A DNA stretch of 36,886 bases, taken from positions 1 through 36,886 of the forward strand of contig CANQIP010000014.1 in NCBI GenBank assembly GCA_947623955.1, given 5' to 3'. The position numbers and the translations under genes are program-made. This DNA is from an uncultured Clostridia bacterium (GTDB taxonomy: Bacteria; Bacillota; Clostridia; UBA1381). Under the pieces are notes generated by a model. That model was given only the letters and a program-made list of their open reading frames with translations, had not been told where the DNA came from and made no database searches. How positions within the stretch are numbered: the first letter of the stretch is position 1; every line of letters starts with the position of its first letter. Below are positions 9,540 to 29,356 of the stretch, piece by piece.

Positions 9540-9628
9540 TACATTGAATATTATACAGCCGCATACTGTCGGAAAGGCTTATGTAGCGGACTGTTTGGGG
9601 ACATTAAAGAGTGACGGAGGAGTGTAAG

Positions 9629-15600: not shown

Positions 15601-17932
15601 AACGCTTACGGCAAAGGGAGCGGTATCGTCCGCGGACGTCGGCAGCTATGACAAAGTTGATTTGACTGAAATAGCCCTTGACGGTGACGACGCAGAGTAT
15701 TACAGCGTTGAAACCGAAAAGAGCGGAGCGGACTTGAAGGATGGGATTGAAATCACAAGAGCGGACGGCATTGCGGCAGTCACTATGGCGGATTACAAGT
15801 GCGGCGACGAAAGCATAAACCCTGTTCCCGCATCGGATACGAACGGTATAAATAACGTCACGTACACGTATTCGGTAAAGGACGCAGACGAGTACGGCGA
15901 GGAAAAGCCGCTGCTTGCGGGCGAGTACACTGTTAAGGCGGTATTCGAGGCGACGAACAATTACAATGAGGTGACCGTGACCGATGATTTTGTAATAACG
16001 CACAACTGGGACGAGTGGACAATTACCGAAGAACCCACGCAGACAATGGGCGGCATGGCGGAGCGTGATTGCCTGAGCGCGGATAACGATGCACCCGACA
16101 GGTATGCGCTGCCAAATTTGACGGATGCTTCGGTGTGGACAAAGGGCACATACATGAGACCTACTCCCGACAGGGAAGGCTCGCAGGAGTACACGTCCGA
16201 ATACGGCACTGTTACCGAAATCATACCGCAGCTTGTTGTAACGGAAATACGCGTGAAAAACAACCCCGTGGACACAACGGTCACGGAGAGTATGGTGCTC
16301 GACGTGACGGGACTTGAGGTCGAAGCCGTGTATTCGGACAATTCAACGGCTGACGTTACGCACGACTGTAAGCTGAGCTACGACACCTCCGCGGTTGGAA
16401 CGCAGACGGTAACGGTCGAATACGGCGGCAAGACGGCGGCGTTTAATATTACGGTCGCGGCAAAAGAGCTTACAGGAATTACGATTACAAAGAAACCCGA
16501 TAAACGCCTTTACAATAAGGGTGACAGCCTTGACACAGCGGGTATGGTCGTAACTGCGTCGTACAATAACGGCACGGAAGCGCAAATCACGGACTACACC
16601 ACACAAGGATATTCGCCGCAGACGGTAGGAACGCAGACCGTTGCCGTTTCATACGGCGGTTTTACGGCTGAATTTACGGTGACGGTTGAGGAAGTAACGG
16701 CTCCGAGCGGCACAGTGCCGACGCCGGTAATAGAAACAAGCGGTTTTTACGGCGGTAAGACGGTGACGCTTACGTGCGCGGCAGCGGATGCGAGGATTTA
16801 TTATACAACGGACGGCTCCGCTCCTACAAGCGCGTCAACGCTTTATACCGAGCCGCTCACGGTAACGGCAACGACAGTGATTAAGGCGATAGCCGTTAAG
16901 GACGGTATGGAGCCGAGTCGAGCTGCAAGCGGTAAAGTATCGGTGTCAAAAACCGACGCTATCGTGCCGAGCATTGAGGCGGGCGAGGTTGAAGCGGGTA
17001 CGCTCGTAACGCTCCGGAGCGCGTCGAGCGGCGCGGAAATATTCTACACGATCGACGGCACTGCCCCGACGACGGAGAGCGCGCGTTATGGCGGCGCGAT
17101 AACGGTAACGGAAGAGATGACGATTAAGGCGATAGCCGTTAAAAACGGTTACGCGGCAAGCGACGTCTGCGAGTTGAGCTACACCGTTAAGGAGCGCGAG
17201 CCGAACACGGCTAATCTTTCGGTCGGCTCCGCAGTCGGCAAGGCGGGCGATACGGTTTACGTGCCGATATATATAACGGCTGACGGCGATATAACCGATT
17301 ACCGTTTCACGCTGACATTTGACAGCACAAAGCTCGCTTACGCGTCGGTTTCATCGACTGACGGAGCGGCAGGGAATATATTCACTTCGCTCGGTGAAAA
17401 TGCCGTTACTGTACTGTATAGAGGCAGCAGTGAGGTAAAGAGCGGCGAGGTGTGCCGCGTGGGATTTAAGGCGCTTGACGGTGCGGCTGACGGTGAGTAC
17501 ACGTTAGCGGTGAGCGGCGCGGAAATCTCTGTCGGAAACATGTACTGCGGCGTGACAAGCGCGAACGGCAAGGTCACTCTCTCAACTCCCGACATAAAGG
17601 TGTCAGCCGACGCTGTGTTTACCGATAGCGATGGAAACGAGGTTGACATGGACAGCATGAGCGGCGAGGTTGACGCGAGCTTGACGATTGACGAAGTTGA
17701 GGGTACGGACGGCGAACAGCCGATGATAGCGAATATACTCCTCGCGGTATACGACAGAAGCGGTGCGCTTGCGGCACTGAATGTAATGGAAACCGATTTG
17801 TCGGACACGAGCTTCGTATTCCAAAAGACGATAAGCATACCCGCAAACGTTTCGGTCGGCTCGATTAAAATGATGATATGGAACGGACTTAGCGATATGT
17901 CGCCGCTCACGGCGGCAAGTAAAATGCTGTAA
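9629..17932 (+). CDS. Secreted giant GLUG-repeat protein with Ig-like, MBG, chitobiase-C and cohesin-like domains
   Basis: About 2767 aa. ATG 9629 is preferred over the in-frame GTG 9611 because GGAGGAG (9616-9622) sits 6 bases before it and a clean signal peptide follows (MKKRIV...TASA, about 28 aa). Residues about 38-1400 hold four blocks, each opening with a segment like TANINLGG...WTPIG...FDG and followed by GLUG motifs (GGIVG...CYNTG). Then come an InlB-like repeat (about 1425-1490), three MBG-like repeats (1613-1850), an Ig domain, a YDG-like domain (about 1956), two Big_3 domains (2202-2360), two chitobiase/hexosaminidase C-terminal-type domains (2369-2520), a cohesin-like domain (2526-2654) and a C-terminal Ig-like domain ending MMIWNGLSDMSPL. 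No SLH, LPXTG or transmembrane anchor is seen, so attachment may be through another protein. Function is likely adhesion or scaffolding; no catalytic domain recognised. Confidence 0.9.
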   Translation: MKKRIVSLTVILSMALAMIPAFSLTASATGSFTGASSGNGTASSPYIIANAADFIAFRDYINITSPDGGRGQYFRLTANINLGGREKPWTPIGSEEKPFEGMFDGIGRTISGLYLEEKGENPELTESVGLFGTVSGGMIQNVNISDSAVIGTSYVGMIVGHAKQSAVINHCSVSSGTVSGEMNVGGIVGFSDESDVKFCSNQSAVSVNVECAGGIVGSGRDFDITSCDNSGTVSGKGDKIGGIIGDYNSRYSGFWFVWGCRNMGTVTGVNIVGGIAGEAVGNIQACHNINTVSGKGKEIGGIVGIASTSDSVSDCHNTGEVSGEMNVGGIAGGAQFSDVERCSNAGSITVTGSMNSGGIVGALEGAAAEECYNTDSVSGENAVGVGGIVGEVGSHCTVSCCYNTAEVSGRDSVGGIAGINYVDEHGVTSCYNYGKVNASDSMSGAIVGYGGGSTNCYYLEGTADAGDKGAAVKTEKEFYTLASALNAGGDKWNDYRLSEFGRPRLVNNKENSSGGISGNGKKDAPYLIKSLKDMEAVSDYVNTGNGANEYFKLTADINLGGREKPWTPIGSEENPFKGTFDGDGHTISGLYTDSAESNNVGLFGYVDGGTIKNLDVDGTVTGGENVGLAAGYLKSGTIDNCAATGRAAGNKNAGGIVGASETGASVTSCYNEAALRSAAAESVGGIVGNNGGSVKNCYNISKSVTGQTNYGGIAGSSSGTIESCYNYGEIEKKEEPGDSVYGAVVGTTTGTVTNCFYLTGTSDKGIGSGEGSAEGKNADGFAALSAKLNGKTAVWQDSPFLKRPILLSNPEHDADGLGTKEDPYTISTAEHLRAVANYINTSSQSGDKKYFKLENDIDLGGSEAEQWDPIGRAGYGENNYSFNGEFDGCGHVISGLYIDDEWWMQQGLFGVVGASGVIKNLGVTGYINGGTEVGGIVGYNEGNIENCYSAVTVISHIDEEFGDTDSDAGGVAGSNIGTISNCFNIGSVTGDGNYVGGVAGYSPNLVKNSYSAANVQGVDGVGGIVGYTAGGSTSITNCYSYGSVTGSENVGGIVGENTTDGSGKTTVKNCYYLKDTAEYGVGNDETTKDGAEIPSEQTAAKTAEEFKTLAEALNAGVEGTWEDSEFLGRPILIAVSEIVGEGTANTPYLIPSLSVLKSVRDHINVNGSSNEHFKLTADIDIAGSADDQWAPIGTETNKFQGTFDGDGHKISGLYINTEDDIQGLFGYIDEAGTVKNLGVKGSVTAGRHGGGIAGRNNGTIICCYNGANVKSNTEYAYVGGIVGDNSGKIENCYNTGSIEIGVNGAYAGGIAGVGGTIENCYNTSKNITASSTLYAGAIIGYAAMGCRVTNCYYLEKENLKGVGSSNDFLSPIENLESKTEEEFNSGEVTWLLQKGQTAPDTQVWGQKIGAAADEYPVLTGDTDAKVLKVTFATNDNESYAAKYTNSNGTVEMPEKPVKDNYTFEKWSQSNDAAGTEFNEKTTVSADMTVHAVGRDYFGGDSDITLNETYGYKEAITANLDDYMKYANESVTSKNKFTYSIESDENYTQAKIESENTLSVPIGLDANDYTIKVKAHEKEPQYSLMSVESNGAEDVTLTITVSISKAEPSVTSVPTAADLTYNGEEQELVTAGETADGTIEYSTDGDTYSTDIPKGTEAKEYTVWYKVVGDSNHNDSEPQQVENVEIKRAAPKVTAPTAKDLTYTGEAQELVTAGETADGTIQYSKDNENYSADIPTEMNAGTYSVWYKVIGDSNHNDTEPVKIENINIGKAEPIAVVTPKDLTYTGEAQELVTGETADGTLKYATDEAGEYTDAVPTGTEADTYTVWYMVEGDKNHNNSTPQSVDVTIKKADSTLAVDGGEVTYGDTITLTAAVARDNTNDIRLAAVDAVEFYLGETPLGSGTVTYDSLFNDSGTATLTITADKKFEIGANTIRAEYGGSVNLNGSENNSITVTMNKKPLTYTVTADGKVYDENTSVNVTLTPTNKVGEDNVTLTAKGAVSSADVGSYDKVDLTEIALDGDDAEYYSVETEKSGADLKDGIEITRADGIAAVTMADYKCGDESINPVPASDTNGINNVTYTYSVKDADEYGEEKPLLAGEYTVKAVFEATNNYNEVTVTDDFVITHNWDEWTITEEPTQTMGGMAERDCLSADNDAPDRYALPNLTDASVWTKGTYMRPTPDREGSQEYTSEYGTVTEIIPQLVVTEIRVKNNPVDTTVTESMVLDVTGLEVEAVYSDNSTADVTHDCKLSYDTSAVGTQTVTVEYGGKTAAFNITVAAKELTGITITKKPDKRLYNKGDSLDTAGMVVTASYNNGTEAQITDYTTQGYSPQTVGTQTVAVSYGGFTAEFTVTVEEVTAPSGTVPTPVIETSGFYGGKTVTLTCAAADARIYYTTDGSAPTSASTLYTEPLTVTATTVIKAIAVKDGMEPSRAASGKVSVSKTDAIVPSIEAGEVEAGTLVTLRSASSGAEIFYTIDGTAPTTESARYGGAITVTEEMTIKAIAVKNGYAASDVCELSYTVKEREPNTANLSVGSAVGKAGDTVYVPIYITADGDITDYRFTLTFDSTKLAYASVSSTDGAAGNIFTSLGENAVTVLYRGSSEVKSGEVCRVGFKALDGAADGEYTLAVSGAEISVGNMYCGVTSANGKVTLSTPDIKVSADAVFTDSDGNEVDMDSMSGEVDASLTIDEVEGTDGEQPMIANILLAVYDRSGALAALNVMETDLSDTSFVFQKTISIPANVSVGSIKMMIWNGLSDMSPLTAASKML
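9853..9942 (+). repeat. Near-identical 90-bp repeat, copy 1
   Basis: This segment codes the TANINLGGREKPWTPIGSEE block opener and matches 11284-11373 with only 4 differences in 90 bases, although the sequences around both copies have diverged. The copies are 1431 bases (477 codons) apart. Confidence 0.85.
11284..11373 (+). repeat. Near-identical 90-bp repeat, copy 2
   Basis: Second copy of the block-opening segment of the GLUG protein, matching 9853-9942. Three of the four differences change an amino acid. Confidence 0.85.
14467..15180 (+). repeat. Three tandem MBG-like repeats in the GLUG protein
   Basis: Units starting near 14467, 14712 and 14958 each contain DLTYxGExQELVTxGETADGT and a closing YTVWYxVxGDxNHN. 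The first two are about 245 bases apart. The third unit has an in-frame loss of one codon (ELVTGE for ELVTAGE). Unequal copies at both DNA and protein level suggest recent expansion. Confidence 0.85.
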
Positions 17933-17935
17933 AAC

Positions 17936-17969: not shown

Positions 17970-17985
17970 ATAAGGTAATTATTTT

Positions 17986-18723
17986 TCAATTCAAACCGTT
18001 TGCATCACGTATTGTCTGTAAATCTGCTTCTGTGGGTTCTTGAACAGACATATCTGCCCAACTGCCATATAACCAAATCCAATTTTTATCCTCAGACAAC
18101 TGATACTCAAATGTACCCTCTGTTGTCGGCTCTGAAGTCATAGCCATCCATTCTGAACCCCAATGACCCTCTCCTGTTAATTTATTGACATAATAATGAG
18201 CATTTATAACAGATTTACCCGTTGAGTCTTTGAAGTCTGTCAAACCGGAAAAGACCTTATATGCTTCAACTCTTCTATTACCACCTGTTGGAACTTCCAA
18301 ACCGAGATCCGGCGCAACGCCCTGTTCTTCACCTAAAATGCCATGTACCCCTTTTTTCAGCACTACCGCCGTACCGTCCGCTTTTATAACGGTGTCGCCT
18401 TCTCTCGCAAATCTTCTTTGCGATACCTCGCCCTCGTGGATTATAATCGGGTCATCGTCGTTTGCCGTTTCCGACGGCTCGGCTTGCGTACTTATGGTAA
18501 TTGTATTATTCACAAAATCTACAGTAAATCCGCCTACGGCATCGGCTGCGTCTCGGAGTTTAAAGTATGTGCTGTCGTTTATGTTATAGCCTTCGATTGA
18601 CTTAGAAACGCCGTCAACCTTAACCGGGAACGGGTTCGCCGTAACGGCATACTCAACCGCAAATCCCGTCAGCGCGGAACAGATAATGCCGCCTATTACG
18701 AAACCTAAAATAAACTTTTTCAT
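17986..18723 (-). CDS. Secreted stalk-domain (copper amine oxidase N-like) protein
   Basis: 245 aa from the ATG at 18723; longer in-frame readings are rejected because the GGAAGGGGG ribosome binding site and a signal peptide (MKKFILGFVIGG...FAVEYA) belong to this start. Residues about 33-80 form the stalk domain named after the copper amine oxidase N-terminus (VKVDGVSKSIEGYNI...FKLRDAADAVGG...ITIST), which is a structural surface module in Clostridia and does not imply amine oxidase activity. The remaining about 160 residues, with YYVNKLTGEGHWGSEW, are not recognised. It is a possible distant paralogue of the gene at 34616-35320. Function unknown. Confidence 0.85.
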   Translation of the reverse strand: MKKFILGFVIGGIICSALTGFAVEYAVTANPFPVKVDGVSKSIEGYNINDSTYFKLRDAADAVGGFTVDFVNNTITISTQAEPSETANDDDPIIIHEGEVSQRRFAREGDTVIKADGTAVVLKKGVHGILGEEQGVAPDLGLEVPTGGNRRVEAYKVFSGLTDFKDSTGKSVINAHYYVNKLTGEGHWGSEWMAMTSEPTTEGTFEYQLSEDKNWIWLYGSWADMSVQEPTEADLQTIRDANGLN

Positions 18724-18763
18724 AAAAAATCCCCCTTCCGATATATTATACATCAGAAGGGGG
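18724..18763 (-). terminator. Terminator-like hairpin overlapping promoter and ribosome binding site
   Basis: On the minus strand CCCCCTTC (18756-18763) pairs with GAAGGGGG (18731-18738); a U-G pair and GAT/ATC extend it to a 12-bp stem with a 9-base loop, and ATTTTTT follows. It can stop transcripts of the SLH protein/peptide operon. The loop contains the -10 box of the next gene, and the 3' arm is its ribosome binding site. Confidence 0.7.
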
Positions 18764-18773
18764 AAAAAATCAA
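18745..18773 (-). promoter_or_regulatory. Sigma-A promoter of the stalk-protein gene
   Basis: Minus-strand -35 TTGATT (18768-18773), 17-bp spacer, -10 TATAAT (18745-18750). The start would be near 18738, so the promoter's own transcript lacks the left arm of the hairpin and its ribosome binding site stays free. Confidence 0.75.
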
Positions 18774-18784
18774 GATGACGATTT

Positions 18785-18806
18785 ATTTGCCCGTTTTGCG
18801 GCAAAT
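18785..18806 (-). promoter_or_regulatory. Inverted repeat behind the peptide gene
   Basis: ATTTGCC (18785-18791) and GGCAAAT (18800-18806) form a perfect 7-bp inverted repeat with an 8-base spacer, touching the stop codon of the peptide gene. There is no T-run, so it is not a normal terminator. It lies 12 bases upstream of the stalk-gene -35 box and may be an operator or an RNA 3'-end hairpin. Confidence 0.4.
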
Positions 18807-18946
18807 CATATCTTGCGTCTCAAGGAGTCGTCAATCTCGTGTTCCGGTACGCGCGGTACGTTGTCAAACGCGCCGCCGCCCGTTACTTGCTCCAAGTCCT
18901 CCAAGTCCAATTCCTGAGTGTTCTTCTCTTTCTCATTTTCAGCCAT
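18806..18946 (-). CDS. 46-aa peptide with double-glycine leader (candidate exported signal peptide)
   Basis: The frame begins MAENEKEKNTQ, continues ELDLEDLEQVTGG and then G, and ends with a core AFDNVPRVPEHE-IDDSLRRKI. The leader fits the double-glycine consensus for export by C39-peptidase ABC transporters: Leu at -12, Glu at -9 and Asp at -8, Leu at -7, Val at -4 and Gly-Gly at -2/-1, counting the second glycine as -1. Predicted cut after the second or third glycine leaves 21-22 residues. The core has no Cys and is charged and proline-containing, unlike membrane-active bacteriocins, and resembles a signal more than a toxin. An excellent ribosome binding site AAGGAGGA sits 6-7 bases upstream, only 20 bases behind the stop of the SLH giant, so it shares that transcript. 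Real gene likely; the pheromone role is inference. Confidence 0.8.
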   Translation of the reverse strand: MAENEKEKNTQELDLEDLEQVTGGGAFDNVPRVPEHEIDDSLRRKI

Positions 18947-18966
18947 TTTTATATCCTCCTTAAAAT

Positions 18967-21900
18967 TTATTTGATTGTCTTGTCAAACCGCTCCGTCAGC
19001 GCGGCGGCTTCGGCGCGTGTGGCGTTGTTTTGCGGCCTTAATGTGTTGTCCGTGTAGCCGCTCATAACGCCCGAACCGCATGCCCACTGTATGGCGGGTA
19101 TTGCGTATTCGCTCGTTTCTTCCGCGTCGGCGTAGCTTAGTATATTCGTGCTTTCACCGACCGACACGTCCTTTCCGATGTACTGCGCGTACCGCCACAG
19201 CATAGCCGCGACCTGTTCGCGCGTTACCAATTCATCGGGTGCAAACTCCGTATCGCTGTAACCGGAGACTATTCCGTTTTCCGTACCCCATGCGATATAC
19301 GGCGCGTAGTACATATCCTTGTTTACATCGGTGTACGTCATATCCGTGCTTTCGGGCTTAACGCCGTTCATGCGTCCTATTACCGTTATGAGCATACCTC
19401 TTGTGATGTTGGTATTGGGTTCAAACGTGTCCTCACTTACACCCGCGAAGTAACCCTTTTCAGTTGCATACTTCACGCTGCCGCTGAACCAGTCCGCAGA
19501 AGTTACGTCATTAAACTGTGTTTCCGCGGTATTGCCGCCGTCGGGTTCGGTCGTCGGTTCAGGTGTTGCCGTAGGCTCGGGCGACGCTGTCGGGGCAGGG
19601 GTTGCCTCCGCGCGCCGCGACGCGCCGGAACCCGAACCGTGCGGTCTGGATGTAGGCTCTGCTTTACGCGGCGTTACCGTTACCGTTATGTCGGGTATCG
19701 CATTGCCGTACGGAGTGACGTTACCGTGTATCACGGTCGTACCCTCGCCGATTGCCTTAAGCGTTGTGCCGTCGAATGCCGCGACCGCCGCATCGTCCGT
19801 ACCGAGAGCCGCGCTCATGCCTTCGCTAAGCGCACTCGGCTCGCACGTTATGCTGAAGTCCATCGTCTCACCCTCGGCAAGCTCTATCTTTTCCGGGAAC
19901 GGCTCGCCGTTTAACATAAATTCCATCGGCATCGCTGCGGTAAGAGAAATATTTTCACCCTGCGTTACATATTCTCCGTCCTTATTCTTGCCCAATAACA
20001 GACAATCCACAAATCCGTATTTTTCAAACGGCTCCGCAACGGCATTTATATCTATCGTAAAGCTTTTGGTTTCGCCGACGCCTATTCCGTCCATTGCAGC
20101 CTTGCCCCAGTCGCACTCGTCAACCGTGTAGCCCGTGGCGGCTCCGTACGGACCGGAGAAAATAACGTTCATCGTGTCGTCCGAGTTTGACGGCACATTG
20201 CCCGTGTTTGTTATATTATATTTGACATGATAACCGTTGCTGTCCTGATACGGATAAACGTCATCCACAACATATTGAGGCTTATCTTCAAGCCTGTCAC
20301 TCTCATAAGACGATACATTTTCCATACCGCCCTCTTTTACCTCGGCAATAAGGCTTACGCCTTCTACGCTTGCGGGGGCAGTCCATTCAAATCTTAAAGT
20401 ATCCGTGCCGGAGGGGAGCAGCTTGCTATCGCTGTTAAGCGTATATATCGGCTCACCATGCTTTTTACCGTTTTTAGCCTCGTAAACGTTTAAGGTATAA
20501 CCGTCTGCGTAAGTAAGACCGTTGTTTGTGATGTCGACGTACACATCTGCCGTGTCGCCTCCGCCCGGAGTTTCATCGGACAGCGTTATATCCGTAACAT
20601 CGACCGCTCCGCACGGCGTCATATATGAAGCCATGAGCTTAAAGTCGCTTATTTCAACGGGGTTTTCGGCGTTATCGGTTATCTTCTGTTTAAAGCTGTT
20701 ATACATAACCATGAGGTTTCCGCTGTCATCTATCACGGCATTGGGTTCATCGGTGAATGCGCCGGTGTTTGTCAGCCTATATGCCGGCGCCCACGCGGAA
20801 CCGATCGCCTCGGCAGGCTCGTTCGGGTCGGACGAAGGTATCGGATCGTTTTGAATTAAAGCCGTCGCGTATATCTCGGTTCCCTGCTTTTCGTTAAAGT
20901 CGTCCGTGTCCTTATCCTTCGTTTCGGGCTGTGTCCAAACGACGTATATATCGTCGCCGTCCGTAACCGCCTTAAAGTCAGCCATGTACCGCGTGTTATC
21001 CGAATTTTCTGCAGGCATCGCGACATAGGAGTAAAGCGAGTCGATATCCTTTACCTCATTGCTGTTTTCGGTATTGAGATACTCATCCTTGATGTGACCG
21101 TCATTGTCAATGCCGTCACGCACGAGCGACGTTATGTCTATGTACGCGACAGTCCTGTCGTCTCTGTACCAGAACAGCTTTGTATCAGCCGCTTCCGCTT
21201 TCGTCGTTTTGGCTTCCGGATGCTCGGCAATAGCTTCGGCAAACGCTTTGTTTTCCGTTCTCACGAACTGCGGCAGAGCGTCCGCCACATTGTCGTCCGT
21301 AATTCTTACCGGTTTATACGTCGTGTGTTTCTCAAAGTCGTAGCACTGCACGAACAACTCCTTGTCGTTAGTCGTATCACCGTTCGAATCCTGATCGATC
21401 GTGTACGCGTAAACGGCTATACCGTTATACGTTATTGCCGTGAAGTCGGACACGTTAGGAACATCAAGTCCCAGCTCCGGCAGCGGCGACGACAGGAAAC
21501 GCTGACCGTGCCATTCGTTTATGAGAGTTTCCTTTTCATCTTCCGTGCTGCCGTTTCCGTTGCTGTCGGACAGCTCTTCGGGGTAATACTCGTCGACCAT
21601 CCACTTGCTCTTTTCGGCGGAGTACAGCATATATATAACGGCGCAGTCGTTCGTGTAGGAGTTAGCCAGATCCGCAGCCGTTCCCTCGGAATTACCGGTT
21701 TTTACGTAATATACCGCTCTGTCGTGCGTCTTTTCGTCGTAGACGCAGGTCGGGTTGTAATCGTAATACTCATCCGTTGTAAGACGCGTTTCCCCGCTGA
21801 CCGTACCGTTTGCGGGATCGATTACTGCTGTGTAGACCTCCAAATTTCTCAAATAATCGGCGGAATCCTCCGTAGTCGCCTTATCGGGATCGCTCGACAG

Positions 21901-24900
21901 CCACGCAATCATCACCTTGCCGTCCTCGATCTCGCATACGCTCGGCTGGAAGTCAGCCTTTTTATCGTCCTGAACAACTTTAGGATCGCTCCATGTGCCG
22001 CCCTTATACACCGCGTATTTGAGTACGGTTCTCTCCGTTGCGCCGCGCGATGTGTCGGAATCGAGGAATGCTGCGAAAACACTGTCATCGCTGAGCTTTA
22101 TGAGCTGCGTGTCGGGATGCTCGTAAGCGTTATCCACTATCGTTTCGCTCGATGCTTCACCGAACGCCGACATAAGCGAAATATCGCCGTCGGGACGCCA
22201 TTCGCTCTTTTCATCGCTGTAAGGCTGCCTTACGGAGAACGTCGGCTCGTTTTCCGCGCTTGTAAGCGATATATCATTGTTGTCGGAAAGACTGGTGGGC
22301 GTTACCGGCCCCATTTGCGCGTACTGCTCGAACGAGCCGAATTTCCAGTCGGGGAATGAGTACTGCAGCGGTATCGAGAACAGGAACAAATCCACCCAAA
22401 TACCGAGCTTCAGCACAAGATCGCAGCCCCAGTCATCAACGTAAGGATCGGGTTCGTACAGCGCCATTGCAGAGAACGTGCCGCCGCCGCGCAGACCGAT
22501 CGTTCCGGCAAGTCCGACGCCAACGTAAATCTGAACGGTCGCTCCCATCTGAACGGACGCTTCAAATTCTCCGAGCACATTGTTAAAATCAACCCGTGAT
22601 TTCTGAGCGTCGGTGTATGTAATTTGGGACTTTGAAAGGTCGGTACCCGCGCCGATAAAGCCGAGTACGTTGCCGCTTATTTCAACACCGAAGTAGGCGG
22701 GTATGAACACGACGGGAAGGAACCAATAACATGTCATCCTAAATCCCGCGCTTAATCCCAAATACAGGCCGATGCCGGTAAACACCGCGTTTTTCCCCTT
22801 TGTCTTGCCGCTTGTGTCAAGGAGACGCGCATAAGTGAAGTCGCAATAGATGCCGATTTGAATATCCATTTTCCATGTCGGCGCGCCGAGCGAAAGCTTT
22901 CCGCCGAATTTCTCCATGAGCGCCTCGTCGTGCGGAATTTGTCCGAATGCCGTTTCAAACGACTGACCGAGACCGTTCAGGAAGGTCTCTATCGGATGCG
23001 CGATTTCAAATTCATCCTGCCAGTACTTATGGTTATCGCCCTCGTACTTGTTGAGATGCGTATGCTTAATCGTGTCCACAAGCTGAACCGGACTGAAACC
23101 GATATACATTCTGTAACCCGTGCTGGTCTTTATGCAGCCAAAGGATACAAACGGTAAATCAAAACGTGTACCCGTGTCGCCGAGCAGAGGAAGCTCCTCG
23201 AAGAAGTCTATGCTGAGCGGCAGGTCTATGTACTGAAGCACGGGGATCTCCATTTCCGTATCCTCTATGAACGTAAAGCCGGTGAACGTGTCGGTATACG
23301 TTGTGGTGTCCATAGCCTTTACGGTCTCCTCATCCGGCGGATTGCTGTCGTCAAAGCCGGTGCGGTCACCCGTTACACCGTGGGACCTGTCGGTTGTAAC
23401 GCGTATATACAGCAAATCATCGTGGTTTATCTTGGAAAGCGGCATATCGGCAGTGAATTGGTCATCGCTGCCCTCAACGGGCTCCGCCTTGCATGAGTCA
23501 ATCTCCTCGAAGGTGGTTCTGTCGTACACGACAAACTCTATTCCCGTTACCTTTTCCTCGGCGTCCTCGCTTACAAGGGTATTGTCCTTAACATAGGTTT
23601 TCTTGTACGGCATGGTACCGTTTACCGTAGCGGTTATTTCGACCGTGCTGTCGTCGCCGCTCTTAAGCTTAATCGTGGAACCGCTGTTGCCGGCGCTCGA
23701 CAGCGATATGTTTTCGAGTATGCTGCCCGTTTCCGACGTCATGCGTATAAGTCCCGCGGTTTGGTCGCATACCGGCACTTTTTTCGTCACCTGCTGCTCG
23801 CCGTCTATCACGGTAATTTCTCTGTCCTCCGTGCCGTTGTCAACGAGTTTTATTTCATCGAATAATTCCTGACCGTTCAGCGAGATCATATATCTCACGT
23901 AGCGGTCGGAGGAGCTTGTAGAGCTTATCGCGCGGAACGGCGGAACGGTGAAGGAACCGTCATCGTTCACGTACGTGACGTTCCCGGCAAAGTTTACTAT
24001 CGCGTTACGCGCGGGACGTGAATTTACGTCGGTAGCGGTTCTCGTCTGTAAATTGTAGAACGGACTGAAAACGCTTCCGGTAACGGACTGGTACACGTTT
24101 TCGGCTGTGCCCTTTTCGACGGACAGCGTTATAATGTTATTGTTCGTATCCGAGCCTGTGGACGGCAGCGCTTTGTGTAAAAATACTTCGCCGCTGTAGA
24201 ACCTGTTATTGTTCGCTTCGGTCCACAAGGGGTAGATATTGGCATCCGCCGTATCCGACATACGTACGGAAAGGGGATATACCTTGCCGTAAATGGGATC
24301 GTCGGATATAACGTATTCCTCATATGTAACACCCTTGTCGGTCATCGTATTGTGCGCCGCCGCTTTCATAAAGCTGTACGACGTATCGAAATTGGCGAGC
24401 TCGTCCTTGCGTACGCGCACGGTCATGGCGCCCTGCTTGCTCTTGAAAAGCGGAGTAATCTCGTAGCAGTCTTTCTTCAGCCTTTTGTTCGCATCGAGAT
24501 ACGCGCTTGTTCCGTTGTCCTCGGTGTAGGATATAATTTCTTCTCTGTCCCATTTTGTACTGTTTTTGTTTGCCTTATATTTAAGCTCGAAACCCGCGGG
24601 CTCGTAGTATTTCGCGTAGTCCGGATCCATAACCGTGGAAATTTTCAGTATATCGCCGTAGTGATATTCCTTAGTCACGTCCGATGCGTTTGAAATCTTG
24701 CCGTTTGTATCGCCGTTTATCACAATATTGCCCATCTTTTGCTCCGGAGCCTTGACTGTGACGTTGGAGGTTATATATCCGAAACTCGGCTTAAGATATA
24801 TCGTGCCGCGTGAAGCGTTTGTTTGGGTTGTCTGGTTACCCCAACCATCAATGTCGTTCTTCAGAAACTTTATGTACGACTTATTGTCATATATGAATTT

Positions 24901-27015
24901 CGAAGTTAACGTGAACGAGTGTTCCAGCAAACCGTCGTACTCATACGACGCGATCTGCTTCGGCGAAGAGCCGTCCTCATTGACAATGGACATGCCCGAC
25001 AGGTACACGTACGGAGAGGTAGTGTTGCCGCCGACGCTCTGCGAGTAGCCTATCTGGTTCGCTTCGTCTTTCGTGTAGCGGATAATCTCATTGTTGCTTG
25101 TGTTGTCCGCACCCAAAAGCGCGAGGAATGCCGCGTCCGACCAAGCATGGTATTTGTTGTCCTCGCCGAGGAACTGCGGCTGATCTTCAGTCTCAAGATC
25201 GGTAAGCATAATTTGGAACGGTCTGTATATCGGCTTTATGCTGCTTATATACACATGGTTACAGTCGCGGCAGTTTGACTCATACTGTACCGCAAGATAA
25301 GCCGGATCGTTATTTTGACAGAAAATATTTGTGACCGTATTATCCGCTATTGTGGCTTGGGCGTTGTAGTCCCACGAAGTACCCGAATACCACGACCACA
25401 AAAGTTCTGGGTTATTCACGATAGGCGCCGTGACAAAACCGATTTTCACCCTTGGGCAGGATCCGGTCGTTTTCCATTTGATTTGAGCGCCGGCGATGTC
25501 GTAGCCGTTATATGTGGTATCGGTAAGCTTCCAGCTTGCGTACAGATTACCGTTATGGGCGCCATCAACACCGGGCAGCCAACTGAATGCTCGATCCCAG
25601 CCGTTGCTGTCATCCTTCCACATCATGTCCCAGTATTTGTTGTTGGAATCGTATCCGTTGGTGCCGTTATAATGTGAGTCTTGCTGTACATGCTCAGCCT
25701 TAGACAAATCCAGCTCGCTGCCCGTGACGATGCTTTGCAGGTTGTAAGCGGTTGTCACCGACGAGAGCGTCGCGTCGCTGCCGTCGCTGCCCTTGACGGT
25801 CTCGCCGAGCGTGCCGTCGATCGTGACGGTCGCTTCGCCGCCGTCAATGCTGCATACCTCGCTTTCTTCAAGCTTCAGCTTAAAGTCGGCGCTGCCGAGT
25901 ATGTATTCGCCGCGTATCGGTATATCTATTTTACGTGTGTCAATTCCCATCGGGAATATTACATCCATTTCGACGGGGGAGAAGTCGCGTCCCGCTTCGG
26001 CTGTGCCGTTTTCCGACGTGAGGTGCGCTTCCGATATCGTGTTAAGCGCGCCCTCGCGCTTAATCTCAACCGTGACGCTGTCACCTTCGGCATTGTAGCT
26101 TTCCTCGGCAAAGTAAATCCGGGACGGCTGCTGTTCCTCGTCGTCAACTACGGTAAGAGCGCACGTTGACGACGCGCTTATTGTCGTCGTGCCGTGCGGA
26201 TCGGCGAGCACCATAAAGAAGGTGCGGTCGCCGTCACCCTCGCCGTTGTCCTCAACGTCTATGGCTATGTACTTCTCCTTTTCACCCTCGGCAAATTCAA
26301 CGTTGAGCGTCGCACCGACAACAACATTTGTTATGACGTTTGCCATCTGCTGAATTTGCTGCATCATATCGGTCGTTGCGGTGACGTTCTGCGGTTCGCC
26401 CTCAATGCCCGTGAACATCGCCCGCGCCTGTTGGAGCGAACTTGTGCCGCTGTCCGAAGGCACGGCTTCCGTTTCGGCGTTCTGCTGCTCATCCGCGGAG
26501 AGCAGACCGCTTTCTTCCTCCATGTAGTCAACGACGTCCTGAAGTCCGGTCTGAGTTTGTTCCTTAAGCTCCTCGTCGTTTTCAAGCATTTTGTTAAATT
26601 CTTCTTCCGATTCGAGCTTGGCTTCCGTGTATTCCTCGCCTTCGATACGTTCGAGGAACGACAGGTTGTCGTCGGGGCTTACGGCTTCCGTATCGCCGCC
26701 GAGCAGAGAAACCCTGTAGTCCCTGCCGTACTTTGCGGTGAGGTCGGAAATCTTGACCGTCACATCCGACGCGGACGCGCAGTCTCCGCCTCTCGCGAGA
26801 CGCAGAAGATAACGCTCGTTTGCGCCCTCCTTGAGCTGTGCGCTCGAAGCGGTGAGGTAGAATACGTCGTTTTCGAGTATACCCTCTTCCATTTCGATTT
26901 CGGGGATATACACGTCCGTCGTTTCCGCTTCGGCGGGAAACGCTATTAACGGAGCGATAAGCGCTGCCGACAAAACGGCGCTTATACCCCTCTTTAATCT
27001 TGATATTGCTTTCAT
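18967..27015 (-). CDS. Giant SLH-anchored surface protein with Calx-beta and CARDB-like domains
   Basis: 2682 aa, exported and held to the cell wall. Signal peptide 1-31 (cut near AEAETT). Calx-beta-like strands about 68-110 and 235-290 are split by an acidic helical, Gln/Glu-rich insert of about 120 residues; a second Calx-beta is about 298-395. Large unrecognised beta regions follow. Residues about 1278-1565 are rich in alternating hydrophobic and glycine segments (GIGLYLGLSAGF, QIYVGVGLAGTIGLRGGG). About 1630-2120 looks like repeated propeller blades, then two CARDB-like domains (2135-2355), a Big-like domain (2365-2450), a Pro/Thr/Glu linker and three SLH repeats (2498-2682) with motifs ITRGM, VTREQ and ATRAE. 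ATG follows AAGGAGGA. It is first in an operon with the GG-leader peptide and divergent from the LytTR/kinase operon. No catalytic site recognised; adhesion, receptor or scaffold role is possible. Confidence 0.9.
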   Translation of the reverse strand: MKAISRLKRGISAVLSAALIAPLIAFPAEAETTDVYIPEIEMEEGILENDVFYLTASSAQLKEGANERYLLRLARGGDCASASDVTVKISDLTAKYGRDYRVSLLGGDTEAVSPDDNLSFLERIEGEEYTEAKLESEEEFNKMLENDEELKEQTQTGLQDVVDYMEEESGLLSADEQQNAETEAVPSDSGTSSLQQARAMFTGIEGEPQNVTATTDMMQQIQQMANVITNVVVGATLNVEFAEGEKEKYIAIDVEDNGEGDGDRTFFMVLADPHGTTTISASSTCALTVVDDEEQQPSRIYFAEESYNAEGDSVTVEIKREGALNTISEAHLTSENGTAEAGRDFSPVEMDVIFPMGIDTRKIDIPIRGEYILGSADFKLKLEESEVCSIDGGEATVTIDGTLGETVKGSDGSDATLSSVTTAYNLQSIVTGSELDLSKAEHVQQDSHYNGTNGYDSNNKYWDMMWKDDSNGWDRAFSWLPGVDGAHNGNLYASWKLTDTTYNGYDIAGAQIKWKTTGSCPRVKIGFVTAPIVNNPELLWSWYSGTSWDYNAQATIADNTVTNIFCQNNDPAYLAVQYESNCRDCNHVYISSIKPIYRPFQIMLTDLETEDQPQFLGEDNKYHAWSDAAFLALLGADNTSNNEIIRYTKDEANQIGYSQSVGGNTTSPYVYLSGMSIVNEDGSSPKQIASYEYDGLLEHSFTLTSKFIYDNKSYIKFLKNDIDGWGNQTTQTNASRGTIYLKPSFGYITSNVTVKAPEQKMGNIVINGDTNGKISNASDVTKEYHYGDILKISTVMDPDYAKYYEPAGFELKYKANKNSTKWDREEIISYTEDNGTSAYLDANKRLKKDCYEITPLFKSKQGAMTVRVRKDELANFDTSYSFMKAAAHNTMTDKGVTYEEYVISDDPIYGKVYPLSVRMSDTADANIYPLWTEANNNRFYSGEVFLHKALPSTGSDTNNNIITLSVEKGTAENVYQSVTGSVFSPFYNLQTRTATDVNSRPARNAIVNFAGNVTYVNDDGSFTVPPFRAISSTSSSDRYVRYMISLNGQELFDEIKLVDNGTEDREITVIDGEQQVTKKVPVCDQTAGLIRMTSETGSILENISLSSAGNSGSTIKLKSGDDSTVEITATVNGTMPYKKTYVKDNTLVSEDAEEKVTGIEFVVYDRTTFEEIDSCKAEPVEGSDDQFTADMPLSKINHDDLLYIRVTTDRSHGVTGDRTGFDDSNPPDEETVKAMDTTTYTDTFTGFTFIEDTEMEIPVLQYIDLPLSIDFFEELPLLGDTGTRFDLPFVSFGCIKTSTGYRMYIGFSPVQLVDTIKHTHLNKYEGDNHKYWQDEFEIAHPIETFLNGLGQSFETAFGQIPHDEALMEKFGGKLSLGAPTWKMDIQIGIYCDFTYARLLDTSGKTKGKNAVFTGIGLYLGLSAGFRMTCYWFLPVVFIPAYFGVEISGNVLGFIGAGTDLSKSQITYTDAQKSRVDFNNVLGEFEASVQMGATVQIYVGVGLAGTIGLRGGGTFSAMALYEPDPYVDDWGCDLVLKLGIWVDLFLFSIPLQYSFPDWKFGSFEQYAQMGPVTPTSLSDNNDISLTSAENEPTFSVRQPYSDEKSEWRPDGDISLMSAFGEASSETIVDNAYEHPDTQLIKLSDDSVFAAFLDSDTSRGATERTVLKYAVYKGGTWSDPKVVQDDKKADFQPSVCEIEDGKVMIAWLSSDPDKATTEDSADYLRNLEVYTAVIDPANGTVSGETRLTTDEYYDYNPTCVYDEKTHDRAVYYVKTGNSEGTAADLANSYTNDCAVIYMLYSAEKSKWMVDEYYPEELSDSNGNGSTEDEKETLINEWHGQRFLSSPLPELGLDVPNVSDFTAITYNGIAVYAYTIDQDSNGDTTNDKELFVQCYDFEKHTTYKPVRITDDNVADALPQFVRTENKAFAEAIAEHPEAKTTKAEAADTKLFWYRDDRTVAYIDITSLVRDGIDNDGHIKDEYLNTENSNEVKDIDSLYSYVAMPAENSDNTRYMADFKAVTDGDDIYVVWTQPETKDKDTDDFNEKQGTEIYATALIQNDPIPSSDPNEPAEAIGSAWAPAYRLTNTGAFTDEPNAVIDDSGNLMVMYNSFKQKITDNAENPVEISDFKLMASYMTPCGAVDVTDITLSDETPGGGDTADVYVDITNNGLTYADGYTLNVYEAKNGKKHGEPIYTLNSDSKLLPSGTDTLRFEWTAPASVEGVSLIAEVKEGGMENVSSYESDRLEDKPQYVVDDVYPYQDSNGYHVKYNITNTGNVPSNSDDTMNVIFSGPYGAATGYTVDECDWGKAAMDGIGVGETKSFTIDINAVAEPFEKYGFVDCLLLGKNKDGEYVTQGENISLTAAMPMEFMLNGEPFPEKIELAEGETMDFSITCEPSALSEGMSAALGTDDAAVAAFDGTTLKAIGEGTTVIHGNVTPYGNAIPDITVTVTPRKAEPTSRPHGSGSGASRRAEATPAPTASPEPTATPEPTTEPDGGNTAETQFNDVTSADWFSGSVKYATEKGYFAGVSEDTFEPNTNITRGMLITVIGRMNGVKPESTDMTYTDVNKDMYYAPYIAWGTENGIVSGYSDTEFAPDELVTREQVAAMLWRYAQYIGKDVSVGESTNILSYADAEETSEYAIPAIQWACGSGVMSGYTDNTLRPQNNATRAEAAALTERFDKTIK

Positions 27016-27047
27016 GACATCCTCCTTATTGCTTTTTATAGTACACT

Positions 27048-27120
27048 ATTATAATTATATTATACCATAAATCTTCATTGTTCGAGCCGTATTTCACGAC
27101 GGATAAAATGACTTTTACGT
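27048..27120 (-). promoter_or_regulatory. LytTR-type operator and promoter of the SLH protein/peptide operon
   Basis: Reading the minus strand: ACGTAAAAGTCA (27109-27120) and TCGTGAAATACG (27088-27099), period 21 bp; 11 bases; weak -35 GAAGAT (27071-27076); 17-bp spacer; -10 TATAAT (27048-27053). The poor -35 suits an activator-dependent promoter. A second TATAAT with TGG extension at 27059-27064 may give basal transcription. Confidence 0.65.
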
Positions 27121-27189
27121 CAAAAGCATTTTTTGTTTCGTAAAAAGCAAAGCCGAAATATTGAAAACGGTATAAAAATGTGGTAGAAT
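27117..27189 (+). promoter_or_regulatory. LytTR-type operator and promoter of the regulator/kinase operon
   Basis: Direct repeats ACGTCAAAAGCA (27117-27128) and TCGTAAAAAGCA (27138-27149), 10 of 12 identical with a 21-bp period. Eleven bases follow, then -35 TTGAAA (27161-27166), a 17-bp spacer and -10 TAGAAT (27184-27189). The ACGT at 27117-27120 is shared with the divergent operator. The site implies autoregulation. Confidence 0.7.
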
Positions 27190-27245
27190 TGCATATAAGA
27201 TAAACGCAGCTTATGTTTAACAGCGATGTGGGGGAGGAATATGTT

Positions 27246-27962
27246 ATGAGAATAGCCGTTTGCGACGATAACGCGGCTGACAGAGAGAAATTTGCAAAGA
27301 CCTTGAAGGAGTGCGCTCCGACGATCGACGCGGAGCAGTTCGCCGACGGCGCGTCATTTCTCGAAGCGGCGAAAAAAATGCCGCCGTTCGATGCCGTGTT
27401 TCTCGACATATATATGCCCGGCACGAACGGTGTGGACATTGCAAAGACGCTTAAGGAAATTTCGCCCGAAACGGGTTTGGTGTTCGTTACGACGAGTAGG
27501 GAACACGCGGTCGAAGCATTTTCTCTTTACGCGATGCATTATTTGATAAAGCCTGTGACGGCGCAGGGGATTCAGCAGGCTTTAAGCCGCCTGACGGAGC
27601 TGCGGCACAGTCACAGGGACAGCATTACGCTTACGGTCGGGCGCGAAAGACACATTGTATTTCTGGATCAAATCTGTATTCTTGAAAGCGACAATCATAC
27701 CGTGAACGTTTCTCTCTCGGACGGTCGGCGGCTGAAGGTTCGTATGCCGTTCGGCGAGCTGGAAAGAATGATGAATAAAAAATTTCTGCGGATAAACCGC
27801 GGTATAATGGTAAACATGGACTATATCATGCGTATGGGTGCGGATACGTGCGTTATGCAGAACGGTATCCGTCTGCCGATTACGATACGGCAGAGCGCCG
27901 CGATACGCGCGTCGTATGACGATTATGTGTTTGACAGGCTTGCCGGGAGGAAAGGCTTTTAA
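27246..27962 (+). CDS. LytTR-family response regulator (AgrA/ComE type)
   Basis: 238-aa cytoplasmic transcription regulator. The N-terminal receiver domain has acidic pair Asp7-Asp8, phosphorylation site Asp54 in AVFLDIYMPG, the Thr/Ser switch at FVTTS (80-84) and Lys102 in YLIKP. The C-terminal LytTR DNA-binding domain (about 135-230) includes CILESDNHTVNV and FLRINRGIMVNMDYI. ATG 27246 is chosen because GGGGAGG (27231-27237) is 8 bases upstream and MRIAVCDDN is the standard start. It is followed after 14 bases by its kinase gene. LytTR activators bind direct repeats about two helical turns apart, and such repeats lie directly upstream, in both directions, and before the GLUG gene at 9629. 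Confidence 0.95.
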   Translation: MRIAVCDDNAADREKFAKTLKECAPTIDAEQFADGASFLEAAKKMPPFDAVFLDIYMPGTNGVDIAKTLKEISPETGLVFVTTSREHAVEAFSLYAMHYLIKPVTAQGIQQALSRLTELRHSHRDSITLTVGRERHIVFLDQICILESDNHTVNVSLSDGRRLKVRMPFGELERMMNKKFLRINRGIMVNMDYIMRMGADTCVMQNGIRLPITIRQSAAIRASYDDYVFDRLAGRKGF

Positions 27963-27976
27963 GGAGGGTGGTTACA

Positions 27977-29356
27977 ATGGTTTTTCTTGAAAATACCGTA
28001 GGTTTTTTCGTGCAGTATTTTCCGTGCGCCCTGATGATTTTTCTGCCCTTCCCGAACGGAGCCTATCGTTTTCGGCGTAAATGGATTTTCGTATGGATAA
28101 CGGCTGCGGCTGCCGCCGTCGCGGCGCTGCTTCCCGTGATACTGCACAGCGGCGTTGCCGCCGACACCGCGCTCACGGCTGACCTGTTTATGTTTTCCGT
28201 AATATGTCTCACGCTTGCGGCTTATATTTTACTGGTTCGCGAAACGCTGATAAAAAAGCTGCTTGTGTTTTTCGTCGTAATGTTCTGCGCCGCGCTGCAG
28301 TATTGCATGGTAAACGCGCTCACCGCCGCACTGTCGGACGTTCTCGGTCTGTCCACGCAATGCGAGGAACATTCGGCGTATTCTCAGTGCGGCGTTATAA
28401 TGTATATAGCTACCGCCGCTGTTATGCTGCCTATTATGATGACGTTTGTACTGCGCACGCTGCGCGAATATATCAGCAGCGTCGAGACAAAGAGCATGAG
28501 GCGCGAATTCCTGATTTTGATTATCTCGACCGTCATTTTTATAGCGGCGGAAATGGGCGTCGATATGACGTATTATCACCTCGCATACGGAACATACTTG
28601 CGGTTTCTCGCAATGCTTGCCGTTTTGCTTGTGTATCAAGTGGTGATTTATTGGCTGATTTTCCGCGAATCGGTGAGGCGCAAGCGCGACAACGACCGCC
28701 GGCGGACAATGGAGATACAGCGGATTCAGTATGAAAAAATCGCGGGTGATATTGAAAGCACGCGCCGTATGCGCCACGATATGCGCCACCATTACAACTC
28801 TCTTAACGATATGCTCGACAGAGGGCGTTTGGACGAAATGAAGGATTACCTTGCCGAAGTGATTGACACCACCGTAAAGCGCGACAGCGAGATGTACTGC
28901 CAAAATATGACGGTGAACGGACTTCTGCAGTATTACATAGGTCTGGCGCGCGACAAGGGCATACGCTGTGAGGCTTGGGCGGACTGCGGCGAGCTTGCGG
29001 TCGAGCCTGCCGACTTGACGGTAATGTTCGGCAACGCCATGGAAAACGCAATAAACGCCTGTGAAAAATGCGGCGAGGACAGGTGGATTGATATAAAAAT
29101 AGGCACCGTGCAGAGTTCGCTCGCAATCGAAATATCCAATTCATGCGGCAGTGCCACGCTTGACCGGCATTTTCAGTCGGATAACGGCTTTCTGCCGGCG
29201 GAGGCGTTTCTGAGCGGCTGTCAGGGAGGCGGGTACGGCTTGCGCAGCATATCGCATACGGCGCAGAAGTACGGCGGCAGCGCAAAATTCCGTTACAACG
29301 CCGAAAAGAAAACGTTCACCGCGCGTATAAGAATGAATATAAGCGCGGAGGAGTGA
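27977..29356 (+). CDS. Polytopic histidine kinase, AgrC/ComD (HPK10) type
   Basis: 459-aa membrane sensor kinase, the likely partner of the preceding LytTR regulator. The first about 220 residues hold some six hydrophobic segments with no large external domain, as in peptide-sensing AgrC/ComD kinases. The phosphorylation box is MRHDMRHHYNSL with His267. A GHKL ATPase follows with N-box FGNAMENAINAC (about 350) and G-box GGGYGLRSI (about 417). ATG 27977 is used because GGAGGG lies 9 bases upstream; an in-frame GTG at 27968 overlaps that site. The ligand is unknown. The GG-leader peptide in the divergent operon is the best candidate in the window, which is inference from position and shared operator. 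Confidence 0.93.
   Translation: MVFLENTVGFFVQYFPCALMIFLPFPNGAYRFRRKWIFVWITAAAAAVAALLPVILHSGVAADTALTADLFMFSVICLTLAAYILLVRETLIKKLLVFFVVMFCAALQYCMVNALTAALSDVLGLSTQCEEHSAYSQCGVIMYIATAAVMLPIMMTFVLRTLREYISSVETKSMRREFLILIISTVIFIAAEMGVDMTYYHLAYGTYLRFLAMLAVLLVYQVVIYWLIFRESVRRKRDNDRRRTMEIQRIQYEKIAGDIESTRRMRHDMRHHYNSLNDMLDRGRLDEMKDYLAEVIDTTVKRDSEMYCQNMTVNGLLQYYIGLARDKGIRCEAWADCGELAVEPADLTVMFGNAMENAINACEKCGEDRWIDIKIGTVQSSLAIEISNSCGSATLDRHFQSDNGFLPAEAFLSGCQGGGYGLRSISHTAQKYGGSAKFRYNAEKKTFTARIRMNISAEE

What the first reader, a model, noticed from the sequence alone, without database searches (positions are those of the whole stretch)
18806..29356. Candidate peptide-controlled circuit: GG-leader peptide, giant SLH protein, LytTR regulator and ComD-type kinase
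Seen: a 46-aa double-glycine-leader peptide shares an operon with a 2682-aa SLH surface protein; the divergent operon encodes a LytTR regulator and a six-helix kinase; the space between carries tandem LytTR-like repeats pointing both ways. Known: GG-leader peptides, HPK10 kinases and LytTR regulators form pheromone circuits (ComC-ComD-ComE, Blp). Inferred: here the pheromone is tied to expression of giant cell-surface proteins, not to competence or a bacteriocin cluster. No C39 ABC exporter is nearby, so export would rely on one encoded elsewhere.
Basis: partly seen in the sequence, partly recalled or inferred. Interest (0 to 1): 0.85.

Follow-up and report, generated by a model that had tools for sequence, protein, structure and literature searches.

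The report
Giant surface protein with exported partner peptide
A gut Clostridia bacterium makes a huge wall-anchored protein and, from the very next gene, a small peptide built for export; relatives keep the two together and often have the export machine just upstream, which suggests a peptide that works with the surface protein rather than an ordinary signalling pheromone.

Summary
In detail: a 46-aa double-glycine-leader peptide lies 20 bp behind a 2682-aa SLH protein, with a divergent LytTR regulator and GHKL kinase and LytTR-type repeats between. The peptide is a real gene, found in 23 genomes of six Clostridia families. In 27 of 29 accepted loci it sits directly behind a homologous giant. 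In ten relatives a C39 exporter cassette (lipoprotein-HlyD-C39 ABC-ABC2) lies directly upstream of the giant; in the window's genome it is on another contig. The peptide travels with the giant, not with the regulator: two operons 78-88% identical from regulator to exporter carry largely unrelated giants and different peptide cores. The regulator sits beside the operon in 5 of 14 loci, and its kinase occurs without peptide or exporter in one relative. Repeats like those at the window promoter precede both giants and several regulator genes, so LytTR control is well supported; the peptide being the kinase's ligand is not. Best reading: a C39-exported peptide that acts outside the cell together with its giant surface protein, under LytTR control. 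Physical partnership is inferred, and linkage alone could explain the shared inheritance. My searches found no paper on this pairing.

The parts
18806..18946 (-). 46-aa double-glycine-leader peptide; leader ...LDLEDLEQVTGG, predicted core 22 aa (GAFDNVPRVPEHEIDDSLRRKI)
   Evidence: ComC leader model PF03047 E 0.0053, 16.9 bits, below its cut-off of 20.4
18967..27015 (-). 2682-aa giant surface protein: signal peptide (by eye), Calx-beta near the N-terminus, long conserved middle, three SLH repeats at the C-terminus
27092..27121 (-). LytTR-like direct repeats GACGTAAAA-N12-GTCGTGAAA of the giant/peptide promoter (first TATAAT 27 bp downstream, read from the sequence)
27116..27145 (+). LytTR-like direct repeats TACGTCAAA-N12-TTCGTAAAA of the regulator promoter, overlapping the above on the other strand
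27246..27962 (+). LytTR response regulator, 238 aa
27977..29356 (+). GHKL (HATPase_c_5) sensor kinase with polytopic N-terminus, 459 aa
9466..9495 (+). LytTR-like direct repeats TTCGTAAAA-N12-ATCGTAAAC before the GLUG giant
9629..17932 (+). second giant, 2767 aa, with GLUG and Ig-like domains; convergent with the peptide operon; shares its operator type

Best explanation
The peptide and the SLH giant are a dedicated pair made from one transcript. The LytTR/GHKL system switches on the promoter (operator shown, binding inferred). The giant leaves by Sec and is held on the wall by its SLH repeats (SLH shown, signal peptide by eye, localisation inferred). The peptide is cut after VTGG and exported by the C39 ABC1/ABC2/HlyD/lipoprotein machine (cassette and co-occurrence shown, processing inferred). 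Outside, the 22-aa core acts together with the giant, most likely bound to it as a ligand or small subunit of the surface structure (inferred). One exporter serves all giant-peptide pairs of a cell (inferred from gene counts).
For: Peptide directly behind a homologous giant in 27 of 29 accepted loci, six families. Of 20 close giants in 70 family genomes, all 17 with a readable 3' end have the peptide; ten more distant giants with readable surroundings have none that my motif scan could see. All 17 peptide genomes of the family have C39, against 9 of 53 others; for the lipoprotein-HlyD-ABC1-ABC2 type, judged by inspection, 17 of 17 against 1 of 53. Exporter directly upstream of the giant in ten relatives of several genera, and in G447 an exporter of the true NHLM type takes that place. 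Two giant-peptide pairs in G001, G005, G007, G015 and G266. In G060 and G044 the regulator (88%), a 1210-aa protein (87%), the lipoprotein (88%) and the exporter (78-81%) are alike, but giant and peptide core differ together. Partial Mantel core~giant given exporter r 0.76, p 0.0003, 13 loci. The core is conserved.
Against: Giant and peptide are neighbours, so moving together may be plain linkage; the leader follows the giant as well (partial r 0.65). No interaction was tested, and the structure model of the giant's middle was unusable (pLDDT 40.6). In G029 two ORFs lie between giant and peptide. A third profile match in G266, to the leader part only, has no giant beside it. In G031 a second giant, cut by contig ends, has no second peptide match. 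In G001 and G015 the giant has its own promoter 391-449 bp behind the exporter. The LytTR operator is also what a pheromone circuit would have. G205 has a peptide-giant locus but no C39 match (84% complete).
Confidence: 0.5

Rival explanations
1. One reading: the exported core is a pheromone sensed by the divergent GHKL kinase, which through the LytTR regulator turns on the giant/peptide operon, the second giant and itself (ComC-ComD-ComE-like autoinduction).
For: GG peptide, C39 exporter, LytTR regulator and polytopic GHKL kinase are all present. Operators stand at both giants and at regulator genes. In the genus, 6 of 6 genomes with the window-type peptide have the kinase, against 1 of 10 others (p 0.0009).
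Against: Most of the genus correlation follows one clade of a PurM tree, and G010 in that clade has the kinase without peptide or C39. A divergent LytTR regulator is adjacent in only 5 of 14 loci. A regulator 88% identical is found with two different cores. Two peptides but one orthologous kinase in four genomes. Exporter promoters lack the operator, 0 of 6.
Confidence: 0.25
2. The peptide is a bacteriocin or microcin-like antagonist, merely co-transcribed with the giant.
For: The leader resembles class II bacteriocin and lantibiotic leaders (window peptide: TIGR03949 E 0.017, below cut-off; TIGR01847 in 5 of 20 members, best 0.051; NF000539 in 2 of 20, best 0.00058). The exporter is closest to the NHLM bacteriocin-export models.
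Against: The core is about 20-25 aa, hydrophilic by eye, without Cys, and conserved between families. No recurring immunity-like gene follows it in the loci read; this was by eye, without a formal test.
Confidence: 0.1
3. The peptide helps to make or secrete the giant (a maturation factor, or a feedback signal of export status) rather than being part of the finished structure.
For: Close adjacency; exporter directly upstream of the giant in ten relatives.
Against: The giant has its own Sec-type signal peptide by eye, and related giants without a visible peptide exist.
Confidence: 0.1

Closest known systems
EbfG1-4 / PteB of Synechococcus elongatus (PMC4997328 and PMC9981879, abstracts, openings and outlines seen)
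   Same: Small GG-motif proteins whose secretion needs a C39-type peptidase transporter and which serve biofilm formation, one of them at the cell surface.
   Different: No giant surface protein is named as their gene partner in the abstracts; sequences were not compared here; cyanobacterium.
ComC-ComD-ComE / Blp / Sil pheromone circuits (recalled; of the sil paper only the start of the abstract was seen in the listing)
   Same: GG-leader peptide, C39 exporter, LytTR regulator, polytopic GHKL kinase, direct-repeat operators.
   Different: Target is a giant surface protein; the core follows the giant, not the regulator; the window-type kinase pair is not beside the operon in most loci.
NHLP/N11P export systems (TIGR03794/03796/03797; PMC2887384, passages seen)
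   Same: Exporter components are best matched by these models; the exporter upstream of the G447 giant has an ABC2 above the cut-off.
   Different: No nitrile-hydratase or Nif11 leader, conserved core, an extra periplasmic-binding lipoprotein, and a giant protein beside it; the window genome's own subunits score under the cut-offs.
LytTR direct-repeat promoters of S. mutans and others (PMC6193735, passages seen)
   Same: 9-bp direct repeats separated by 12 bp upstream of the promoter.
   Different: Half-site sequence differs (KWCGTRAAA); distance to the -10 is 27 or about 38 bp.

Membership tests
ComC/Blp-type pheromone circuit | Precursor with canonical double-glycine leader | tested here: met
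   LDLEDLEQVTGG; PF03047 hits 10 of 20 members at E <= 0.1, best 0.001; the window's own score lies below the cut-off
ComC/Blp-type pheromone circuit | C39-peptidase ABC exporter available | tested here: met
   One in the genome; 17 of 17 peptide genomes of the family; not found in G205
ComC/Blp-type pheromone circuit | Polytopic GHKL kinase plus LytTR regulator with operators at the target promoters | tested here: met
   the HPK10 subclass itself was not tested
ComC/Blp-type pheromone circuit | Peptide gene constantly tied to its kinase | tested here: not met
   LytTR regulator beside it in 5 of 14 loci; kinase without peptide or C39 in G010
ComC/Blp-type pheromone circuit | Core type changes together with the kinase/regulator type | tested here: not met
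   G060/G044 regulators 88% identical, cores of two types. Only the regulators were compared: G060's kinase is cut off by the contig end and G044's is partial
ComC/Blp-type pheromone circuit | Core induces its own promoter through the kinase | not testable with these tools
   needs cells and synthetic peptide
NHLP/N11P natural products | Nitrile-hydratase- or Nif11-like leader | tested here: not met
   No such model among the matches
NHLP/N11P natural products | Hypervariable core rich in Cys, Ser, Thr | tested here: not met
   Core conserved, no Cys
NHLP/N11P natural products | TIGR03794/03796/03797 exporter | tested here: inconclusive
   Best models for the three subunits in G000 but all under their cut-offs; met for ABC2 of G447 (717 bits, cut-off 709)
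Class II bacteriocin | Curated bacteriocin model above cut-off | tested here: not met
   TIGR03949 14.9 bits against 21.5
Class II bacteriocin | Adjacent immunity gene | tested here: inconclusive
   Nothing recurrent behind the peptide by inspection; no formal test
GG matrix/surface peptides of the EbfG kind | C39-dependent secretion to surface or matrix | not testable with these tools
   needs secretion assays

The most novel reading that the evidence does not exclude
Clostridia use C39 exporters to deliver a short conserved peptide that is an obligate extracellular partner (ligand or subunit) of a wall-anchored giant protein: a two-part surface machine whose giant and peptide are exchanged as one cassette inside otherwise constant regulator-exporter operons.
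Probability: 0.4. Interest if true: 0.75.

Novelty: new variant of a known kind. Interest (0 to 1): 0.62.

Why it matters
GG peptides of Gram-positive bacteria are usually read as pheromones or bacteriocins (recalled). Here six Clostridia families keep one with a conserved core behind a 2.4-2.8 kaa surface protein, in several genera just downstream of its exporter. If the peptide is a working part of that surface protein, C39 export has a further role in these bacteria, and annotation that calls such peptides bacteriocins would mislead. The natural swap between G060 and G044 gives a ready test of giant-peptide specificity.

Tried and rejected
Rejected: chance ORF. Peptide specificity following the exporter: partial r only 0.40 for the core. 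The kinase as constant companion. The genus-level kinase/peptide correlation as proof: a PurM tree of 18 genomes (G015 and G004 of the genus not in it) shows most of it is one clade.

Led nowhere: an AlphaFold model of giant residues 1240-2130 with a five-row alignment gave pLDDT 40.6, so no fold search was run. The giant profile against PDB sequences found SLH, Calx-beta and weak matches in the stretch 2055-2363, nothing for the conserved region around 1600-1950. I think that region looks like a beta-propeller, an impression only. An inverted-repeat search between the two giant promoters found only 11-13-bp matches. A genome-wide search of 16 genus genomes with a one-mismatch operator pattern gave 9 sites: 3 are the giant promoters (G000, G007, G001); of the other 6, those of G013 and G011 and both of the G010/G008 shared site lie inside genes by my gene calls, one in G010 lies in a spacer, and the remaining one in G008 was not looked at; the backward control pattern gave 3. 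That pattern alone is therefore not a regulon finder. Literature: searches showed no paper on the pairing in their listings (held none; the one paper was looked into, and the Hungate1000 paper); the library lacks most subscription journals.

Rows dropped: of the profile matches, G150 and G176 (E about 0.009) were not followed, and the third match of G266 (E 9e-4, leader part only, no giant beside it) is outside the 29 loci; with it the count is 27 of 30. Weak short-frame hits in G094:C32, G069 and G035 were not followed. The Mantel test used 13 loci; not used were G000, G007a, G001b, G015b, G005b (exporter not linked), G018 (exporter on another contig), G011 (giant frame interrupted), G102 and G031 (fragments), and G029, G205, G114, G447, G266. 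G012 and G038 were used although their exporter and peptide lie on different contigs and their giants are partial, so their pairing is assumed; G007b was used with its convergent neighbouring exporter. Operator background: 219 upstream regions of my own crude gene calls, less 5 that were target promoters in overlapping loci; 7 further promoters (six exporters and the second SLH giant of G007) were scored apart and none reached 15. The half-site was written from the G000 SLH and G001 GLUG sites; without these two and the near-identical G007 SLH site the count is 10 of 14. Of about 50 weaker giant matches, 12 loci were fetched, ten of them readable past the gene; the rest were not examined. In one search some printed gap lengths come from a match in another frame and are not used.
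Full report
What is there. The finding's anatomy is correct. On the minus strand a 2682-aa protein with a signal peptide (by eye), Calx-beta domains and SLH repeats is followed after 20 bp by a 46-aa ORF with a strong ribosome site and a canonical double-glycine leader. On the plus strand, divergently, lie a LytTR response regulator and a GHKL kinase. The window is contig C14 of a 2.13-Mb genome, 87.6% complete. The nearest named records are uncultured Clostridia MAGs; several isolate names begin with Lapin, which I read as rabbit gut. Contig lengths identify two of them with G011 and G001.

Is the peptide a gene? Yes. In 100 relatives a search with the single sequence gave short-frame hits in 15 genomes besides the window's; most other hits were weak matches in about 350-aa frames of PurM (the name was checked on the G000 copy). 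With a profile of 19 peptides, 17 of 70 family genomes and 11 of 391 class genomes match; G150 and G176 among the 11 are marginal and were not followed. I accept 23 genomes: the 17 plus G094, G114, G205, G266, G283 and G447, in six families. Core forms are ..AFDNVPRVPEHKIDDSLRxKI (type A), SIKNVQYTKTxEISDDTKSKI (type B) and a few others, mostly ending in (K/N)I. Per site, synonymous changes exceed nonsynonymous ones in all 13 pairs tried, narrowly in one.

What it travels with. Of 29 accepted peptide loci (the window, the 20 loci, G102, G029, G205, G283, G114, G447 and two of G266), 27 have a homologous giant directly upstream on the same strand. The exceptions are G000:C27, a truncated remnant without its start, and G029, where a 952-aa and a 53-aa ORF intervene. 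In G205 the giant's frame is interrupted before its end, though its 3' part is there. A third G266 match, to the leader only, has no giant beside it and is not among the 29. Searching the family with the most conserved part of the giant (residues 1590-1960) gave 20 matches at E below 1e-115. All 17 with a readable 3' end have the peptide; three (G102:C80, G031:C82, G012:C7) are cut by contig ends. Weaker matches (E 3e-91 to 1e-11) are other large surface proteins. Among those fetched, G029:C63 has its peptide two ORFs on, G004:C527 has a 64-aa GA-leader variant just upstream of the giant, and ten readable ones show none. The 18 giants aligned are 2425-2764 aa. Of seven scanned with Pfam five end in SLH repeats; G447 has an LPXTG-like end (SPKTG in the sequence; Pfam E 0.078), and G114 neither.

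The exporter. The window genome has one C39 match, on contig C1, in a cassette of periplasmic-binding-type lipoprotein, HlyD-like protein, C39 ABC1 and ABC2, best matched by the NHLM export models but under their cut-offs. In G001, G015, G060, G005, G055, G058, G094, G020, G044 and G283 the same cassette lies directly upstream of the giant in the same direction, within 140 bp in eight and 391-449 bp in G001 and G015, where the giant has its own operator-bearing promoter. G012, G038 and G102 show exporter-giant and giant-peptide halves on separate contigs. In G007 and G011 the cassette lies next to the operon, convergent. In G447 a C39 ABC and an ABC2 above the NHLM cut-off stand upstream of giant and peptide: a different exporter with the same pair. 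All 17 peptide genomes in the family carry C39, against 9 of 53 without the peptide. For the cassette type, judged by inspection with fragments in G031 and G102, it is 17 of 17 against 1 of 53. The exception, G033, has it on a 7-kb contig, 98% identical in DNA to the window's, which may be contamination. Outside the family C39 was found in G266, G114, G447, G283 and G094 but not in G205 (84% complete).

The regulator. The window-type kinase (58-95% identity) is in 7 of 16 genus genomes, the window's included. Its pair is beside the SLH giant in G000 and G007, beside the GLUG giant in G001, away from giants in G011 and G005, and near contig starts in G015 and G010. G010 has no profile match to the peptide and no C39. 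Of 13 upstream neighbourhoods fetched plus the window, 5 have a divergent LytTR-type regulator. A kinase follows in four (G044's is partial and matched by alignment only); in G060 the contig ends. One of the 14 (G094) has too little upstream sequence to tell. G012's exporter stands beside a regulator of another type (Trans_reg_C). The regulators of G058, G044 and G060 are 29-30% identical to the window's. A PurM tree puts the kinase-plus-peptide genomes it holds in one clade together with G010 (kinase only), G008 (neither) and G018, so the genus correlation (6 of 6 against 1 of 10) is mostly ancestry.

The operator. A pair of 9-bp direct repeats (KWCGTRAAA, 21-bp period), 27 or about 38 bp upstream of a TATAAT-like box, stands before SLH giants, GLUG giants and regulator genes: 13 of 17 reach 15 of 18 matches, against 2 of 214 other regions (both from one divergent spacer in G015) and 1 of 3400 shuffles. 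For two SLH promoters the script printed a later box; the 27 bp is read from the sequence. The misses are the regulator promoters of G007, G001, G015 and G010. The six exporter promoters and the second SLH giant of G007 do not have it. Direct repeats of 9 bp separated by 12 bp are a published form of LytTR sites (PMC6193735, passages). The regulator therefore very probably controls both giants, the peptide and itself; binding was not tested.

The swap. G060 and G044 have regulators 88%, a 1210-aa protein 87%, lipoproteins 88%, ABC1 78% and ABC2 81% identical. Their giants' best local match is 38% over 290 aa, and their peptides are type A and type B. Giant and peptide thus seem to have been exchanged together inside one operon. 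Over 13 loci the peptide core follows the giant (partial r 0.76, p 0.0003) more than the exporter (0.40, p 0.016). Linkage alone can produce this, because the leader follows the giant too (0.65). It does say that the peptide's identity is not set by the regulator.

How it works. I conclude that the LytTR system drives a transcript for a wall-anchored giant and a C39-exported peptide that acts outside with that giant. Shown: gene order, conservation, co-occurrence, operators, swap. Inferred: transcript, export, cleavage, binding. The pheromone model stays possible at about one in four, mainly because operator and kinase type fit it and a receptor could read the shared end of the core. The bacteriocin reading is weak: short, hydrophilic, conserved core and no recurrent immunity gene seen.

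Known or new. Parts are known kinds; the combination I did not find in print. The nearest functional parallel is the EbfG/PteB system of a cyanobacterium, where GG-motif proteins support biofilm (PMC4997328, PMC9981879; abstracts and outlines). I rate it a new variant of a known kind.

Noticed in passing
window 9600-27250 against L035 (G001:C16): The block GLUG giant / peptide / SLH giant is inverted relative to the regulator in G001 (window 14708-18179 aligns to L035 13779-10283, while window 27657-28136 aligns forward), so either giant can be the one divergent from the regulator. Both promoters share 11-13-bp identical stretches in inverted orientation.
   Followed up: partly
G000:C27 (L045 4732-4845): A second peptide copy in the window genome is a remnant: C-terminal part in frame but no start, near integrase- and replication-like genes (by eye).
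   Followed up: partly
L067 6627-10253, L058 6669-10301: A 1208-1210-aa protein (G044's has a weak beta-helix match below cut-off) sits between regulator and exporter in G044 and G060; TTTGTGATA repeats 20 bp apart precede it, and similar ones precede the exporter operon of G058.
   Followed up: no
L216 178-11458: G029 variant: giant, 952-aa GLUG-like protein, 53-aa ORF, then a GG peptide with core TGGTPKKEPEPISPDTEKNI.
   Followed up: partly
L179 3731-3925: G004: 64-aa peptide with a GA leader end and core NPFASHPRVSSQKISSKVRNDG, upstream of a giant and downstream of an exporter whose ABC1 passes the NHLM cut-off; core resembles type A.
   Followed up: partly
L176 (G033:C60): Exporter cassette 98% identical in DNA to the window genome's, in a genome labelled another genus and without peptide or giant match: recent transfer or contamination. 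PurM of G018, also labelled that genus, falls in the window's clade.
   Followed up: no
L167 8676-8957: Operator-like repeats in the divergent spacer before a secreted-looking 705-aa protein and a 185-aa one, on the same contig as the G015 regulator: possible further regulon member.
   Followed up: no
window 17986-18723: 245-aa protein between the peptide and the GLUG giant; similar proteins occur twice near the C39 cassette (L054 3-1454).
   Followed up: no
G000:C2 (L231 1111-2148): PurM contains ITGGGFIENVPR, by chance close to the peptide's VTGGGAFDNVPR; it explains the weak about-350-aa-frame hits.
   Followed up: yes
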